Below, one piece after another: positions 5,674-44,352 of a stretch of DNA of 64,000 nucleotides. Numbering within the stretch: the stretch's first letter is position 1; each line of letters begins with the position of its first letter. The position numbers and the translations under genes were made by a program. The notes beneath the pieces are model-generated. The model was not told the DNA's origin. It worked only from the letters and a program-made list of their open reading frames with translations, and did not search any database. Source of the DNA: Chimonanthus salicifolius (taxonomy: Eukaryota; Streptophyta; Magnoliopsida; Laurales; Calycanthaceae); contig CM023538.1 in the NCBI GenBank assembly GCA_013350335.1, forward strand, positions 59,075,080 through 59,139,079, written 5' to 3'.

Positions 5674-6555
5674 TCATTTCTTCCCATTCTCCACATCTCT
5701 TTTATCATCAACCAAATCATCTCCACTGACATTCTCATTTTTTCTCACACCTCCAACTCTGTTCTTCACCCACAAAACCATCTTGGATGTTATCATCACA
5801 AACAAGCGAAAAACATGGAAAAGAATGACAAAACAATGCCAAACAACTAGTATGGACATCACCAAAATCCAACCAACAACCAGGTATATCAGTTTATTCG
5901 ATATATCCTCCGATACGACGATCTGCATTGTTCCCACGACGAAAGCCATGATCACCGATGTAACAGCTACCCAAATTGTCGCCACCAAAATCGACGTCGC
6001 TATCATGTTCTTCAGAGGTAAGCCACTCACCAGGAAGAGAATGATGAACAAAGATGAGACTAGCCCAGACATGTCGAAGTACATGAACAGCTTGAAGTTT
6101 CTGGGCGCGTACTCATTCATGATGGATGTTCCGGGCATGAATTTTTCCGTTGAAGGAGACGCAATCGGAGATGAAGCATCGATCGATTCTTGCCAAATGC
6201 CTCCGGGAGGGCTGAGTCCGGAGGTGAATGTGACGGTGGCGATCAATGTCGCAACAATTAGCAATGTGTCGTGCTTTTTTCTGAACCAATCTTCATTCTT
6301 CTTCTGTCTTTGGTAGCTTGTTAATGACTTTAATCTCTTCTTCGATGACTTTGGCTTGATTGGAGACATGGTTTGGGCTTTTGGGTTTGCTTCCCTTTGT
6401 CTCTTACATTCGTCCCAAGGGAGTATGTCAGTGATTTCCATGTCTCCATGGTCACTTGGACTCTCAATCAACAGATGAAGGGCTGTACCTGAGTAGTCAT
6501 TCTCATTTCCTCTATCGACTTCTATCTTAGTCTTTTTAATGAAAAGCTTTAGCAT
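5674..6555 (-). CDS. Ankyrin/PGG-domain membrane protein, last exon only
   Basis: The 293 residues visible end in a PGG domain, the C-terminal four-helix membrane module of plant ankyrin-repeat proteins of the ACD6 type. Signature PPGG is at residues 116-119, followed by IWQ. Predicted membrane segments are about 97-115, 155-180, 184-212 and 223-252, and the tail is charged and cytosolic-looking. Residues 20-48 (TALHLLIESP then DILPW) resemble the end of the last ankyrin repeat and its linker. Directly before the ATG on the coding strand is TGCCTTTCAG, a good splice acceptor, so this is most likely the last exon and the ATG an internal Met. No ankyrin exon is visible upstream before about 12 kb, and an hAT remnant lies in that space. 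Either the 5' exons are very distant or the gene is truncated; this exon itself is undamaged. The family acts at membranes in defence and stress signalling, but a specific role here is unknown. Confidence 0.75.
   Translation of the reverse strand: MLKLFIKKTKIEVDRGNENDYSGTALHLLIESPSDHGDMEITDILPWDECKRQREANPKAQTMSPIKPKSSKKRLKSLTSYQRQKKNEDWFRKKHDTLLIVATLIATVTFTSGLSPPGGIWQESIDASSPIASPSTEKFMPGTSIMNEYAPRNFKLFMYFDMSGLVSSLFIILFLVSGLPLKNMIATSILVATIWVAVTSVIMAFVVGTMQIVVSEDISNKLIYLVVGWILVMSILVVWHCFVILFHVFRLFVMITSKMVLWVKNRVGGVRKNENVSGDDLVDDKRDVENGKK

Positions 6556-10105: not shown

Positions 10106-10159
<54 letters not shown>
10106..10159. repeat. (AT)n microsatellite
   Basis: About 27 uninterrupted AT units. 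Perfect and self-complementary. Confidence 0.95.
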
Positions 10160-23638: not shown

Positions 23639-32403
<8,765 letters not shown>

Positions 32404-35894: not shown

Positions 35895-37539
35895 CATTTA
35901 CAGTAATCTTTTTTTCCTTTTCAATGATATCGATTTTAGATTGTGAGAAATTAGTATATAAATGCAAGTTATCTACGAATAAAGGTGATAATTTAAAAGA
36001 AAAGATGATTAGATAAATAAGAATATTTTAATCTTTTTGCAATGTTAAGATTCATATAAAATTATCTTCCAACATGTAACATTTGTAATTTTTGTGCTCC
36101 ATTTTTCTATTTACTTATTTTGGTAATTTTATTTATTTCATCAAAAAATTATTAACAACATTTAAAAAGAAAAAAAAAACTATAATTTTCAATGGTATCA
36201 TATCATGTTGTTGTTTAGGTTGAGGCCTCATTTTCATTGATGGTAATTCATCGAATAGTTAAAGATAAATGGTCATTCAATAGCAAGAAAAAAAATTTGA
36301 ATGAAGTATTGGCTAATACAATTGAAAAAGAAAATTATGAAATTTAAATACATGTGTGCCTTAAATATGCTTTTGATTTAATTCATTAACATATTTGATA
36401 TATATTTATTTCATGTATGCTTTAAATTTGATTACTCCTTTGAATTGTGTTTTGAATCATGTATACCTTTAATTTAATGATTGACTTGTTTAGCTTTGGT
36501 AAATAAGAGGATTGAATTCCCTAAGGTGAAAGCCCCACATGTCTTAGACCATATGGTGCTAACCGCCTTGCGGGGTGTGTGCGTGTGCACAAGTCTGTCT
36601 TGATGGGGAGGAGTGAGTGATGTGTGAGCACAGGGTCTACCACACTGGCAGCTCACTGACAAGCTAGAGGTGAGAGGTGAGGTGGTCACGAATTCCATAT
36701 CGAGAGCATATGAGTGATGCGCATACATGCGGGTTGGTACTTGTATGTGCATATTAGCGTAATTGATGTTTTCTTTTAAATATGGTGATTCATCTCCTGA
36801 TTTTATGTGGTACATTGATACCATGCAAGCATGATTTAAAGTTGTATTTATTTGGGTTATTTGAAATTAAGGCCTGAGGCCTAGTTAATTTTATCTCGAT
36901 GAATGATTTGAGATTGTAATGATGAATATGACCAGAGGTCCTATTGGAGTAAGGGGAAATGATGTGTATTGTATGAATGGATAGAAGTGACATTATATGT
37001 CATACAGGTAGAAAAATTTCTAAATATTATGGAATTCTGCCGAATTTTCAATAGAATTCCTCTCTTGATTAGACATTTAATTTTCTCCCCTTATTTTACT
37101 TAAATCACATCTCAAAATTTTAGAGTGCGACGGTGTTTAAAGATCATTATATCGGGAAACCGGTTTGATTTGGAATTAGGATTTCCTTTCAAAATTATAG
37201 AGTAACATAGTTTTCAACATATTTTCAGCTAAAAATCAATTTCAAATTCATAAAACTATGGAAACATATTTTTTTCTCTTTATCTTGATAGTCAACGATT
37301 ATAGATGGGCCATCGTACAGTGGAGCCATTTCAAATTATTAATTGGGAGGTCTGAATCTGATCTATCATAATTGCGACCATGGATTAAAATTTATTATCA
37401 ATTCCATAAAAGAGTGCAAATTGAACAGGGTCCTATTCGAACAGAGAACGCATGCAACCACTCAGAGACTCATTTCTCTGATGATCAATCATCAAATCCA
37501 CCAAATCCAAACCAAGCAATATATGAATTTTTTTAATAG
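35895..37539. other. Intergenic, no gene seen
   Basis: AT-rich flanks around a more GC-balanced block (36500-36760) that looks LTR-like in style but shows no ends. A possible decayed hAT remnant near 36210-36350 (EASFSLMVIHRIVKDKWSFN) is too weak to call. Confidence 0.4.
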
Positions 37540-38950
37540 AAAGTGGTTTCTACCATAGAATTGATTTTCCTCTCAATCTCAGGGCAAATGCCCTTTATCA
37601 GAACAGACATATCTCCAAAGACCAAACATAATCCATTGTCATCAAGCATAGGATTATTGCTCCGAATCGAGAAAAATTGCAGAAGAAAAGAATGCAGACA
37701 TACATACTACCTATTGCCACAATGTAACTGGAACCAATGGTTTCACAACTCTGTTTGAGGAAGTACTTTATATAGACCCACTGGAAGCCCCGAAACAATA
37801 GGCGGGTAGACCTTGGTCTTGGTCAAAGCCTACTCGAGAACAGCTCGGAACCATATTACTTTCACAAAATAAAGGGACTTATTCAGTCCTCAGTCCTCAA
37901 ATGTAAACACAGCCCCCATCTGGAGCAAACAACAGCTAATAGTGGCGAGCAATGACCACTGGTAAAATTGCATGGAGTTGTTTCAGTAACATGCAGAGCA
38001 TTTATTTACCCTAACGTTTATGTGTGAACAACATGTTTCACACTTATACATATATATATCTAGTCATTGAAAACTAGAAAATACCTGTTCTCCACCAAGT
38101 AAACCTCCAGAACTGACTCGATCATAAACATATTGTAATAGTAGAGATACCAGCAGATAGTGCTTATATGAGGTTCAGAAATGCCGCAGCAAACAACTGG
38201 TGAGCTTCGTAATCCCATCAAAAGCCAAAGGTGCCAGCATCTGGGACAGGAGCCCTGGTCTTTCTTGATAAGGCTGTGAAGCTCGCCAGTTGCAAAATCC
38301 TTCTCTGCATTCCACCCTTCTGACATGGGAAAGAATTTTTTAAAAACAGAGAGAGAGAGAGAGAGAGAGAATAAAAAAGCAGATGCATATTCTACAAGAA
38401 GAGGAAAAAACAGATCCCGATGGAAGCCAAAGCCAGACCAGAATGTTACAATGCCTTTAATAGAAATCAAAGTCAGGCTAATAGCTTGAATTGATCTCTT
38501 CAAATTTGGAAAACTATTTATCATACCAGTCATTTATTTTCACTAAAATCAGGGCAGTGATGGAGGCACACCATCTGTTAGAGCACGTCAACAATTTAAA
38601 TGGTAGAAAGCATGAGGCATACATGTCTAAATCAAAACCCAAATCCAATTTTGTCAAATTGAAGAAGTTGCAGCACTGTTTACTCGATCAAACTTGTGAA
38701 TTCTCTTAAAATCAATGCAGTCTAAAGCACTAAAGCAAATAATTAGGATAAATGTTATGATAGTCAAACCTTTCAAAAAAAAATGTGATAGTAAATACAG
38801 TTTATATCATGGATAAAGGATGAAATACAAACCTTGATATTTCAGGAGATCTTCATGCATACCACGGGAATGGTGAGCCGCGCGGCATGCTGGCACAGTC
38901 AGTGCGGGGAATGCTCTCCCGCACTGACTCAAGCAAAAGTTCATTGACTG
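37540..38950 (-). other. eRF1 3' untranslated region with two candidate introns
   Basis: Read on the minus strand, candidate exon segments are 38950-38833, 38319-38085 and from 37750 leftwards. Candidate introns are 38832-38320 (CAAG|GTTTGT .. CCATGTCAG) and 38084-37751 (ACAG|GTATTT .. CAAACAG). The first intron has a CT-repeat pyrimidine tract (the GA microsatellite at 38349-38371 on the plus strand). The first junction lies 118 nt after the stop codon, beyond the ~50-55 nt rule for NMD. After the UAG the reading frame stays open through both predicted junctions for about 130 codons. Unspliced, it closes after about 44 codons. Splice sites are predicted only. The open frame at 38533-38060 is the readthrough frame plus intron. 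Confidence 0.6.
38897..38929 (-). promoter_or_regulatory. Stem-loop just after the eRF1 stop codon
   Basis: On the mRNA, AGTCAGTGCGGG (12 nt), a 9-nt loop AGAGCATTC, then CCCGCACTGACT form a perfect 12-bp, mostly GC stem. It starts 21 nt after the UAG. Stable downstream structures can stimulate stop-codon readthrough, so a link to the readthrough context is plausible; function is inferred. Confidence 0.7.
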
Positions 38951-38953
38951 CTA
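38945..38953 (-). promoter_or_regulatory. Readthrough-type stop context UAG CAG UCA
   Basis: The eRF1 coding region ends EESE, then TAG CAGTCA. This is an exact match to the UAG-CARYYA context known to promote readthrough. Plant eRF1-1 has been reported to carry a readthrough-promoting stop and an NMD-inducing 3' UTR forming an autoregulatory loop. Confidence 0.8.
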
Positions 38954-40264
38954 TTCTGATTCTTCGTACACCTCTCCATCATCAGAAAGCTCATCAAATG
39001 ACCTCATATCGAGTTGATAACGAAGGATACCACCAATTCCACCAAATCCCCTACAGAATTGAGAGCCTTCTTGCGACTTGTTGGTGACAAACTCAAGACT
39101 ACAACCAAAGCGCCTGTACTCATTTGCAAACCACTCGAGAAGGGGCATTTTTTCTTGAACTTCTAACTCAGCAGAGTTCGACGAATCACGAAAATTGCTC
39201 TGATTCGCTTCTTGATCCTTGTTCAGATGCTTTACGATGAGCTCCCCAGTAACAGAGTTCTTCAACACATATCGGCTCATGTCCAGATTTTCCCACACAA
39301 TAAGTGTTTCCACTGCACCCATCTCCAAACCCTTTAGTGTGTCATCTACCCCAAAGACATACTTCCCGGTATCTTGGCTAATTTCCTCAAAATACTTCCC
39401 AATTAATTTCTTCTCCTGAATGAATTTCACATTTGACAAAATCTCTGACGACAGCTCAATAGCCTGATTAAAACCATTCTCTCCTCCATAAGAGACATCA
39501 ACCACATTCAGTATCTTGGCCTGGAGACGGGGATCAAACATGTCTGACTGACTTAATTCTGTCTTGAAATCAGCAGAACCAGCCAAAATCAGCCCTGAAA
39601 CATTGGGCTGACTTGTTGACGGGTTGATAAAAAACTGTGTTGCAAGCTCAGCTGTCTTCCTCACATAATTGTGACGTTTCTCCATCCGAAGCCGAGCAAA
39701 CCGCAGAGCTGACTGCCCTCCTCTTCCATGTTTCTTTGGTAGATCTACAGAAAATTTGTGAAGTAATTCACGTGTATTTCCACTTAAAGTACCAAAAAGG
39801 GTTCCATTCCCATCCATTACTATGAAACCAAATTTATCATCAGATTCCAAAAGTTCATTCAGAGCCTCAGTGTGGAACTTATTGTCACAAAGGTACAAAG
39901 ATGCATTTATGGGCCTAAAAGGCTCAAAGTCTATTGTAACTTTCTTTTCCTTCCCATCTTCGGTGACAATAGTCCCAGTGTAAAGAACCAGTCCATTTGG
40001 AGGAACCTTGTTGTAAAGCTTCAACCTCTGCTGAGCAGAGGTAATGGCACCCAACACGGATTGCCGATTTACTCGGCTCTTGATGTTTGAAGCGGTTCCA
40101 AATTCATCACCCAACATCTTAGTTACACGAGATATTTGATCACGTGGAGGCATAATCAAGGAGATCATGCTCGTTCCATTCCCTCTTGCAGCTTCGAGTG
40201 CCTTTATCAGTTTCTTAATCTTCCACATCTCAATGTTTCTGTCAGTGTCATGCCCATCTGCCAT
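38951..40264 (-). CDS. eRF1: Eukaryotic peptide chain release factor subunit 1
   Basis: Recognises all three stop codons in the ribosomal A site and triggers peptide release, working with the GTPase eRF3 in the cytosol. The 437-residue product is full length for plants and intronless. Domain 1 carries GTS (30-32), the stop-decoding TASNIKS loop (NIKS at 60-63) and YLCDNKF (124-130). Domain 2 carries the catalytic GGQ (182-184) in [20 protein letters not shown]. Domain 3, for eRF3 binding, ends in acidic [13 protein letters not shown]. The start is the ATG at 40264 ([10 protein letters not shown], the conserved plant start). The upstream in-frame stretch of Leu codons to 40363 is intron, because a clean acceptor (TTGTACAG) lies 33 nt before this ATG. 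All key motifs are intact. Regulation by stop-codon readthrough plus NMD is likely (see the stop context, stem-loop and 3' UTR entries). Confidence 0.97.
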
Positions 40265-40334
40265 TGCGATTAGGAGGACAACAAACAAGAGTATTACCTG
40301 TACAAGTAACAGATAAATCAATACAAGTAACCAA

Positions 40335-40371
40335 AATAATAATAATAATAACAACAACAACAATAATAATG
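40335..40371. repeat. AAT/AAC trinucleotide microsatellite
   Basis: AATAATAATAATAACAACAA followed by more AAT units, within the predicted leader intron. On the coding strand it gives the spurious Leu run upstream of eRF1. Confidence 0.85.
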
Positions 40372-41469
40372 TGTTCCATAGAAGTGTTAAAAATCATAAC
40401 TGCAAGGGGGTGCCATCACAAAATTCATATGCATGTTACAAGTCAGAAACATATGGATACTTGGAAATTAATAAAGTATAACAAAACAAATCAACCACAG
40501 ACACATATACAGAAACCAAACTGCCTAGGTCCTTTATCTTTGAGAAGAAGGAAATCTGTTAACCTTTTTATCAGTAACAAGTCATCATACATTTGAAATT
40601 TGGTTATAATACCAAGAAACAAAATGCAGTGCCACAAGAATCTGTCCATTCTTTCACATAAAGTCTTTCAACACAGACTGAAGTTATTAAGTAATGGTCA
40701 CTGTAATTGTTTGGAACTGATATATTGGTAATGTGCCTGCCAGTTCTTTTAAAAAATAAAAAAAATCTTTAGTAAAATAGTTCAAGAAAATAAAAAAAAC
40801 AAAAATAAATGTGTGGTGGCATGAACCAATGAATTCAACAAGCTTAGAGTTCTAAGCATGCATGGAAAATGGACAATGCAGAGGATGATCAACATCTTCA
40901 GAGTCACGAAGACAGTCTATGATTCTATGACTGGTGAATATTGTCTTGTGTGATATTTTCCTTACACTAGTTGTCATTGAAGAAGCTAAGAGCCTGTAAG
41001 GGCCCTTCACAACCTAGACACAGTCAGGTTGACAATAAAATTACAATCACAATGATTTCTCCATTCAAAGAAAGACTTCATGAAAAATGGTCCGGGGTCC
41101 AAAAGGATCCAGCCACCAAGATCTATAATCAAGCTCAATAGAAAGAAGAAAGACTTTTCAAGAAGATTAAGGAAATACAAAATCGCTTGTCATTATCTGA
41201 AAGATACTTCAAAAACGAATATCCTAAACACTAAAAAAAATCAACAACTACTGCATCAGGACAAACAAATTTAAGACACAAATGGAAGCTGGTTAGCGAA
41301 AGGAAAATAACCACGCGTAACATTTTCAAAAAATAAACCAAATTCTCTCTACCACCCGATAATGGATACCCCCACATGAATTTGTCAACACAAGCACAAA
41401 TGGCTCTCTACATCCTTGACAATTTCCACAAGTTCAGGTTGAGTTCCTATCCTGAGTTATCGAACCCAT

Positions 41470-42267
41470 ACTTGGCAATCACAAGATACTTCCATGAGGC
41501 ATCATTCTCTTAACCAAATATCCAAAGCCACTTAGAGAGAAGGGCCTCATTGACATCAGCAATGGGTCTCATGCCCAAACCACCATCTTTAATGGATGGA
41601 CCAACAAGTGCCAAATAACAAGATAATTTTTTCATCATACTCCAAGATCCACTCTTCATAGACTTGAAAGTATCAAGAATGTAGATAGGAAGGGCCAAGA
41701 GAACAAACCTCAGTAACATGATACACCCACCTTTGGAGAGATACTTCTCTCTCCAAGAAGGTAAGTCTCTTGTTGGAATTATCAATGATGGGTTCCCAAA
41801 GGGAATGTCAAAGAGTCCCAACGAAAAGAGAAAGGCCAAGATAAATGGAAGAATAGTGGGCGTTGGGAGATTTGGCAAATGCAATTAAGTAAGCAAAGGG
41901 ACAAAATGTCCGCCCTAGAAATCGATCACTTTGGTTAGAGAGATTAGGGAGTTAGCTTTGGGGATGGATGTAACGTTTGTCCAGATCGGCCGATCAACGA
42001 ATGGAATGGCAGATTATTTTGCCAAGCTTGGAGTCACCAACCTTTTCCGGTGTTTCCTTCTTCGAGTTTGGAGGAGCTTCTGTTCTTATTTTATTGTATT
42101 TTCTGTTATTTTTTTTGAAAGGTTATTGTATTTTCTGTTTTTACTAGTTGTTATTTTATTTTCTTCTCTTGTTTGGGTTTAATTCTTTTAGACCTTTTCT
42201 TTCTTCTTGTATTTGTACTCTTTTATTTTAAATATAATTTTCTTGGTTACCGCTCAAAAAAAAAAAG
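41470..42267. mobile_element. LINE fragment with inverted 5' part
   Basis: On the minus strand 41884-41510 reads WREKYLSKGGCIMLLRFVLL, then GGLGMRPIADVNEALLSKWL, the reverse transcriptase end of plant L1-type ORF2. On the plus strand 41931-42060 reads VREIRELALG, then GMADYFAKLGVTN, the RNase H end. It is followed by a T-rich 3' region and a CTCAAAAAAAAAAA tail at 42267. The two parts come from one family in head-to-head order, as left by twin priming. Both lie in the predicted eRF1 leader intron. Target duplications were not found. Confidence 0.7.
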
Positions 42268-43947: not shown

Positions 43948-44352
43948 TCAAGTGGTCAAGCCGAAAATGTCAAAATCAAGGAAGGGGGGTTGAATGACTG
44001 CCATTACCGAAGCTACATGGAAGTAACAAAGCACCTCATGAATATTACCTTGTCCAATTGTCTTCTTTGTTGGCGGGTCGTGAAAAAGACAACATGCAGA
44101 AGAAAAACATACTAAACAAGAATCGGATTTGATAATTTGACTTGTAGACAAGAGCCTAAAAGTTGAATGATGGAGTAAAGAAAACATCTCAAGCAAAATG
44201 GACAGAGAAAGATGAACAATCCCAATGTGTGTGACAAAGTGCATTGAGCCATTTGGAAGTTGAACAAAAGATGGTGTAGAACATGGTTCGTATGAAGAAA
44301 ATAAAAATAAGGTGGAACACATATAATTACTGGCACATGTATCAAAAATCAT
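43948..44352 (-). pseudogene. Copia gag-pol fragment (protease region)
   Basis: Begins IFDTCASNYM, a decayed form of the Copia protease motif DTGASDHM. It continues YEPCSTPSFVQLPNGSMHFV, HIGIVHLS and LLSTSQIIKSDSCLVCFSSA, all standard around the Copia protease. The change from G to C next to the catalytic Asp and the isolated context show it is dead. It lies in the predicted eRF1 leader intron. Confidence 0.75.

What the first reader, a model, noticed from the sequence alone, without database searches (positions are those of the whole stretch)
38945..38953. eRF1 gene ends in an exact readthrough stop context, UAG CAG UCA
The stop codon of the release factor gene matches UAG-CARYYA, the best known readthrough-promoting context in plants. 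For a protein that itself reads stop codons this makes a direct sensor: scarce eRF1 gives readthrough, plentiful eRF1 gives termination. Plant eRF1-1 has been reported to use such a loop coupled to NMD, and the match here suggests this species uses it too.
Basis: partly seen in the sequence, partly recalled or inferred. Interest (0 to 1): 0.9.

Follow-up and report, generated by a model that had tools for sequence, protein, structure and literature searches.

The report
Leaky stop on release-factor gene
The plant gene for eRF1, the protein that ends translation, itself ends in an exact match to the plant "leaky" stop signal, followed by two predicted RNA hairpins and a predicted downstream intron, and so likely lets the cell sense and limit its own eRF1, a loop already reported in Arabidopsis.

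Summary
An intact 437-codon plant eRF1 gene (minus strand, 38951-40264) ends in UAG CAG UCA, an exact UAG-CARYYA match. The surroundings fit the published plant eRF1 readthrough/NMD circuit: a predicted GT-AG 3'UTR intron 119 nt past the stop, and a spliced readthrough frame open for 125 codons to a second stop 53 nt before AATAAA (2 of 5000 shuffles). I file it as a new member of a known circuit; splicing, readthrough and decay were not tested here.

An avocado gene model runs into this region in the same frame, 31 residues without a gap, up to my predicted splice site. Its codons permit 23 of 25 pairs, including one forced G-C to A-U exchange. The signal may thus be CARYYA plus structure. 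This rests on one relative seen through its peptide; 14 other plant tails gave little or no support, and no plant DNA, RNA-seq or Ribo-seq was available.

The parts
38951..40264 (-). eRF1 coding sequence, 437 codons plus TAG stop, no intron in the CDS
38945..38953 (-). TAG CAG TCA: stop codon plus exact CARYYA readthrough context
   Evidence: sequence; pattern search
38942..38944 (-). in-frame ATG 6 nt after the stop codon (possible reinitiation start)
   Evidence: sequence
38897..38929 (-). predicted stem-loop 1: 14 pairs, 12 of them uninterrupted, first paired base 22 nt after the stop
   Evidence: pairing largely compatible with Persea peptide
38854..38892 (-). predicted stem-loop 2: 14 pairs, 10 of them uninterrupted, first paired base 59 nt after the stop
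   Evidence: Persea peptide de novo best stem is the same register, with one forced G-C to A-U exchange
38834..38926 (-). 31-residue gapless alignment with the Persea americana eRF1 gene-model tail in the readthrough frame, reaching the last full codon before the predicted donor site
38320..38832 (-). predicted 3'UTR intron (AAG|GTTTGT ... ATGTCAG|AAGG), first base 119 nt past the stop; alternative acceptor ending at 38392 keeps the same frame
38063..38319 (-). second part of the predicted readthrough extension (125 codons in all, 149 with the alternative acceptor)
38060..38062 (-). second in-frame stop (TAG) ending the readthrough frame, given the predicted splice
38001..38006 (-). AATAAA poly(A)-signal-like hexamer, 53 nt after the second stop
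37920..38084 (-). possible second 3'UTR intron (CAG|GTATTT ... CTCCAG|ATGG); if used, the extension ends 4 codons later

Best explanation
This eRF1 gene ends in an exact UAG-CARYYA stop context, and is likely an autoregulatory sensor in which scarce eRF1 would let ribosomes read through the stop and spare the mRNA, while plentiful eRF1 would make them stop there and let a predicted 3'UTR intron mark the mRNA for nonsense-mediated decay. Shown by sequence: the intact eRF1 frame, the stop context, a 12-bp inverted repeat 22 nt downstream, and a frame that is open across the predicted splice junction. Predicted: the intron, the two stem-loops, and the second stop 53 nt before AATAAA. A ribosome that reads through would cross the predicted exon junction and end near the poly(A) site, removing both NMD signals. 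Inferred and untested here: that readthrough happens, that NMD acts, and that the two stem-loops help. I think the stem-loops most likely slow the ribosome and raise readthrough at the CARYYA stop; they may also keep the mRNA sensitive to NMD when termination succeeds.
For: Intact eRF1 with exact UAG CAG UCA. Composition chance of CARYYA at this one stop 0.0022. Donor AAG|GTTTGT is one of three that share the top score in 37900-39000 (consensus recalled). The spliced frame is open for 125 codons: 2 of 5000 dinucleotide shuffles in frame 0, 9 of 5000 in any frame. Two acceptors both keep the frame. Second stop 53 nt before AATAAA. The exon between stop and intron folds at -46.2 kcal/mol, z -3.67, 0 of 200 shuffles, and of 83 121-nt windows along the predicted spliced mRNA the most stable starts 6 nt after the stop codon. 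The Persea gene-model tail aligns in the readthrough frame: 31 aa, no gap, 0 of 500 shuffles reach its score. Its codons permit 23 of 25 predicted pairs. Permuting only the 18 changed residues reaches its mean pairing score in 42 of 5000 trials and its count of possible pairs in 243 of 5000. Its de novo best stem is stem-loop 2 in the same register (p 0.04). Published circuit in Arabidopsis (passages).
Against: No RNA, ribosome or DNA-alignment evidence from this species or relatives. An Arabidopsis Ribo-seq study found no footprints past the eRF1-1 stop (PMC9293766). Codon usage does not favour the readthrough frame: it scores lowest of all six frames. The extension has no protein relatives in two searches. 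Of 15 plant gene-model tails compared, only Persea clearly aligns in the readthrough frame; Prunus P0083 scores p 0.024, uncorrected for the number of tests, and the other 13 show nothing. Random synonymous codings of the Persea piece fold hardly better than codings of shuffled peptides (mean -26.8 against -25.0 kcal/mol; window -37.3). The de novo stem scan fails on its own positive control, the window peptide (p 0.50), so it says little either way. The acceptor at 38392 scores slightly above the one I prefer.
Confidence: 0.85

Rival explanations
1. Termination followed by reinitiation: ribosomes stop normally at UAG, and some likely restart at the AUG six bases later in the same frame, clearing the downstream exon junction without any readthrough.
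For: ATG at 38944-38942 is in frame and opens the remaining 123 codons of the same predicted extension.
Against: Reinitiation after a 437-codon frame is inefficient in eukaryotes as a rule (recalled). The exact CARYYA match would then have no role. The published plant circuit is described as readthrough.
Confidence: 0.06
2. Compatible with the main reading but different for the stems: the stem-loops do not act on readthrough but on decay; structure just after the stop would keep the mRNA NMD-sensitive and likely set where the NMD endonuclease cuts.
For: In turnip crinkle virus reporters in N. benthamiana, an unstructured region after the stop protects from NMD, and a mutation that makes a hairpin in it abolishes this (PMC6277124, passages). 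In Arabidopsis the UPF1-dependent 3' fragment of eRF1-1 begins 22 nt after the stop (PMC6755094, passages), and the first paired base of stem-loop 1 here is also 22 nt after the stop.
Against: I could not see whether Arabidopsis has these stems; the 22-nt agreement may be coincidence. It does not exclude a readthrough role as well.
Confidence: 0.25
3. The CARYYA match, the open frame and the hairpins are chance features of an ordinary 3'UTR.
For: The 9-mer itself is no rarer than chance in the window. 17 of 3194 121-nt windows in the 64 kb, both strands, fold at -44 kcal/mol or below, and this region is only eighth. Codon usage is not coding-like.
Against: Several low-chance features coincide in a gene already known for this circuit, and the frame and most pairs can be kept in the Persea gene model.
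Confidence: 0.07

Closest known systems
Plant eRF1-1 readthrough/NMD autoregulatory circuit (Nyiko et al. 2017, NAR 45:4174; paper not held, known through passages of PMC11062462, PMC6755094, PMC9293766)
   Same: Same gene; CARYYA next to the stop; intron over 50 nt downstream (predicted here); second in-frame stop near the poly(A) signal.
   Different: Here two strong predicted stem-loops follow the stop. I could not see whether the Arabidopsis gene has them. Splicing, readthrough and decay are untested here.
Type I viral readthrough signal (tobamovirus-like UAG-CARYYA; PMC5382211, passages)
   Same: Exact UAG-CARYYA.
   Different: In the passages read, type I is described without a downstream stem; here two are predicted.
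Type II viral readthrough signal (UGA-CGG or UGA-CUA plus stem-loop about 8 nt downstream; PMC5382211, passages)
   Same: A stem-loop downstream of the stop.
   Different: Stop and triplet differ (UAG CAG), and the first strong stem starts 22 nt after the stop.
Drosophila dfr readthrough stem-loop (+10 to +58; PMC13170385, passages)
   Same: A cellular gene with structure in the first 60 nt after a leaky stop.
   Different: Different gene and kingdom; the passages read mention no NMD sensor built on it.

Membership tests
Plant eRF1 readthrough/NMD circuit | The gene encodes eRF1 | tested here: met
Plant eRF1 readthrough/NMD circuit | Stop codon in a readthrough-promoting (CARYYA) context | tested here: met
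Plant eRF1 readthrough/NMD circuit | 3'UTR intron more than 50 nt downstream of the stop | tested here: inconclusive
   Predicted GT-AG intron starting 119 nt downstream; the gapless Persea alignment reaches the last full codon before the same donor; no transcript seen
Plant eRF1 readthrough/NMD circuit | Long 3'UTR (over 350 nt in Arabidopsis) | tested here: inconclusive
   About 458 nt if cleavage is near 37980 after the AATAAA at 38006; the cleavage site is assumed
Plant eRF1 readthrough/NMD circuit | Second in-frame stop near the poly(A) signal | tested here: met
   TAG 38062-38060, 53 nt before AATAAA, given the predicted splice
Plant eRF1 readthrough/NMD circuit | Measurable readthrough that falls as eRF1 rises | not testable with these tools
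   needs reporter assay
Plant eRF1 readthrough/NMD circuit | mRNA rises when NMD is blocked | not testable with these tools
   needs RNA data
Type I readthrough signal | UAG followed by CARYYA | tested here: met
Type II readthrough signal | UGA then CGG or CUA, stem-loop about 8 nt downstream | tested here: not met
   UAG CAG; strong stem starts 22 nt downstream

The most novel reading that the evidence does not exclude
Plant eRF1 mRNAs carry a composite recoding switch: a UAG-CARYYA stop plus two conserved stem-loops that together set readthrough and place the NMD cut 22 nt after the stop, so that one compact RNA element both measures eRF1 and chooses between rescue and decay of its own message.
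Probability: 0.35. Interest if true: 0.7.

Novelty: new member of a known kind. Interest (0 to 1): 0.45.

Why it matters
A release factor that sets its own level through the leakiness of its own stop codon is one of the cleanest feedback designs in translation. This locus adds another plant and, more usefully, points to a structured exon right after the stop whose pairing appears to be largely kept in avocado. If real, the structure is a new handle on plant readthrough, where the CARYYA signal (type I) is described without a downstream stem. It might also explain why the UPF1-dependent cut in Arabidopsis lies 22 nt past the stop.

Tried and rejected
Paralogs in the same genome: the genome search did not complete (13 tries). 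Conserved extension protein: two searches found nothing at E up to 10, and Pfam found no domain in it. Codon usage of the extension: no support. Looking for stems in other plants' gene-model tails from scratch: the method fails on its own positive control, so it was set aside except for noting that Persea's best stem is stem-loop 2. Rfam on 37000-41500: only one sub-threshold snoRNA match, at 37462-37500. I considered a retropseudogene and rejected it: the frame is intact with all motifs. In the extended gene models I first suspected a conserved extension; most of the tails instead look like predictors splicing out the stop, and apart from Persea they do not match the window.

Full report
What is there. 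On the minus strand, 38951-40264 encodes a complete eRF1 of 437 aa with NIKS and GGQ motifs and all three Pfam eRF1 domains. Most of the listed hits that bear an organism name are plant eRF1s, at up to 95% identity; a rotifer and a midge are among the exceptions (7993 hits, the best 120 listed). The species of the window is not known. The stop is TAG, followed by CAG TCA and then an in-frame ATG. CAGTCA is an exact CARYYA. The nine bases alone are not rare in the window (3 found, 3.86 expected), but at one named stop codon the six bases have a chance near 0.0022.

What surrounds it. A donor AAG|GTTTGT (first intron base 38832) and acceptors ending at 38320 or 38392 predict a 3'UTR intron that starts 119 nt past the stop (splice consensus recalled). 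With either acceptor the frame after the stop stays open, for 125 or 149 codons, to a TAG at 38062-38060, 53 nt before an AATAAA. Dinucleotide shuffles of the spliced 3'UTR keep frame 0 open that long in 2 of 5000 trials, and any frame in 9 of 5000. The splice sites were chosen by me, so these figures are somewhat flattering. A possible second intron (38084-37920) would move the second stop by only four codons.

The structured exon. The 121 nt from the stop to the donor fold at -46.2 kcal/mol (z -3.67; 0 of 200 shuffles as stable). A first, shorter stretch gave z -2.21, with 4 of 200 shuffles as stable. Stem-loop 1 occupies 38929-38897 with a 12-bp perfect stem, the only perfect stem of 12 bp or more with a loop of 3 to 12 bases in the 64 kb that is not a TA repeat. 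Stem-loop 2 occupies 38892-38854, with 14 pairs of which 10 are uninterrupted. Of 83 121-nt windows along the predicted spliced mRNA, the most stable starts 6 nt after the stop codon. In the whole window, both strands, 17 of 3194 windows are at or below -44 kcal/mol, and this region ranks eighth.

A relative. Among the 120 listed proteins, 108 carry the motif I anchored on, and 18 of those have long tails in place of the usual C-terminus. These look like gene predictors splicing out the stop and running into the 3'UTR frame (inference). I compared 15 of the 18 with the three frames of the exon after the stop. Persea americana P0005 aligns in the readthrough frame, 31 residues without a gap, 13 of them identical, 0 of 500 shuffles as good; P0083 (Prunus) reaches p 0.024 without correction; the other 13 show nothing. 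The Persea alignment reaches the last full codon before my predicted donor; against the spliced sequence tblastn ran two unmatched residues further. This supports the exon boundary. Taking each Persea residue as its set of codons, 23 of the 25 predicted pairs inside the aligned part can form. Sliding one side by 1 to 6 bases gives 12 to 19. Shuffled peptides reach the mean pairing score in 0 of 5000 trials and the count of 23 in 8. Permuting only the 18 changed residues reaches the score in 42 of 5000 and the count in 243. One pair is forced from G-C to A-U on both sides, and a second changes on both sides and can still pair; two pairs cannot form. Against this, random synonymous codings of the Persea piece fold hardly better than those of shuffled peptides (mean -26.8 against -25.0 kcal/mol). 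Without being told the structure, the best stem that the Persea peptide allows is stem-loop 2 in the same register (p 0.04). The same method fails on the window's own peptide (p 0.50), so it has little power.

Mechanism. [quoted passage not shown] High eRF1 gives termination and NMD, and low eRF1 gives readthrough and protection (PMC11062462; PMC6755094). The original paper is not held, and I know its abstract only by recall. I infer the same loop here. My addition is that the two stems probably assist. They may raise readthrough, as downstream structures do in type II and III viral signals (PMC5382211) and in Drosophila dfr (PMC13170385). They may also keep the message NMD-sensitive, since a hairpin in the region after the stop abolished NMD resistance in turnip crinkle virus reporters (PMC6277124). 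The UPF1-dependent fragment of Arabidopsis eRF1-1 begins 22 nt after the stop, the same distance at which stem 1 begins here. I cannot tell whether that is coincidence.

Against. An Arabidopsis Ribo-seq survey saw no footprints past the eRF1-1 stop (PMC9293766). The extension has no protein relatives in two searches, and its codon usage is not coding-like, the lowest of six frames. The peptide therefore is probably not the point; passage of the ribosome is. The last 60 residues of the extension are hydrophobic (GRAVY 0.51, against -0.44 for eRF1), so the product may be unstable (inference).

Verdict. It is a new member of a known circuit. I met no description of the stems, but my look was narrow: two searches carried structure words (one search found 0 papers; one search listed 6, of which I read passages of one, PMC6277124), and of the papers listed I read passages of seven in all, the one above included. 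The defining paper was not available, so I cannot exclude that it mentions the stems.

Noticed in passing
proteins P0005, P0008, P0021, P0055, P0066, P0095 and others: 18 of the 108 anchored plant eRF1 database proteins (120 listed) have their C-terminus replaced by a long tail, apparently because gene predictors spliced out the leaky stop and continued into the 3'UTR frame; a likely annotation error and a possible marker of open readthrough frames.
   Followed up: partly
P0055 (potato eRF1 gene model), tail: The tail holds two similar segments (GVEQEACTGARGLSPYSAAHVLSKK and GVKQEGCIGVRELTPDLATHVLSNK), which suggests a tandem duplication in the potato eRF1 3'UTR.
   Followed up: no
38952-38932, minus strand: A weak third hairpin is predicted to pair part of the stop codon and CAG with UUGCU just before stem-loop 1, so the leaky stop itself may be partly paired.
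   Followed up: no
23913-28624, plus strand: Exons of a glutamate-receptor-like channel gene (ANF_receptor and Lig_chan domains).
   Followed up: partly
5677-6555, minus strand: ORF with a PGG domain.
   Followed up: no
43951-44352, minus strand: Remnant resembling a retroelement Pol polyprotein beta-barrel domain, below Pfam's cut-off.
   Followed up: no
10106-10159: Long perfect TA repeat that can form a 25-bp hairpin.
   Followed up: no
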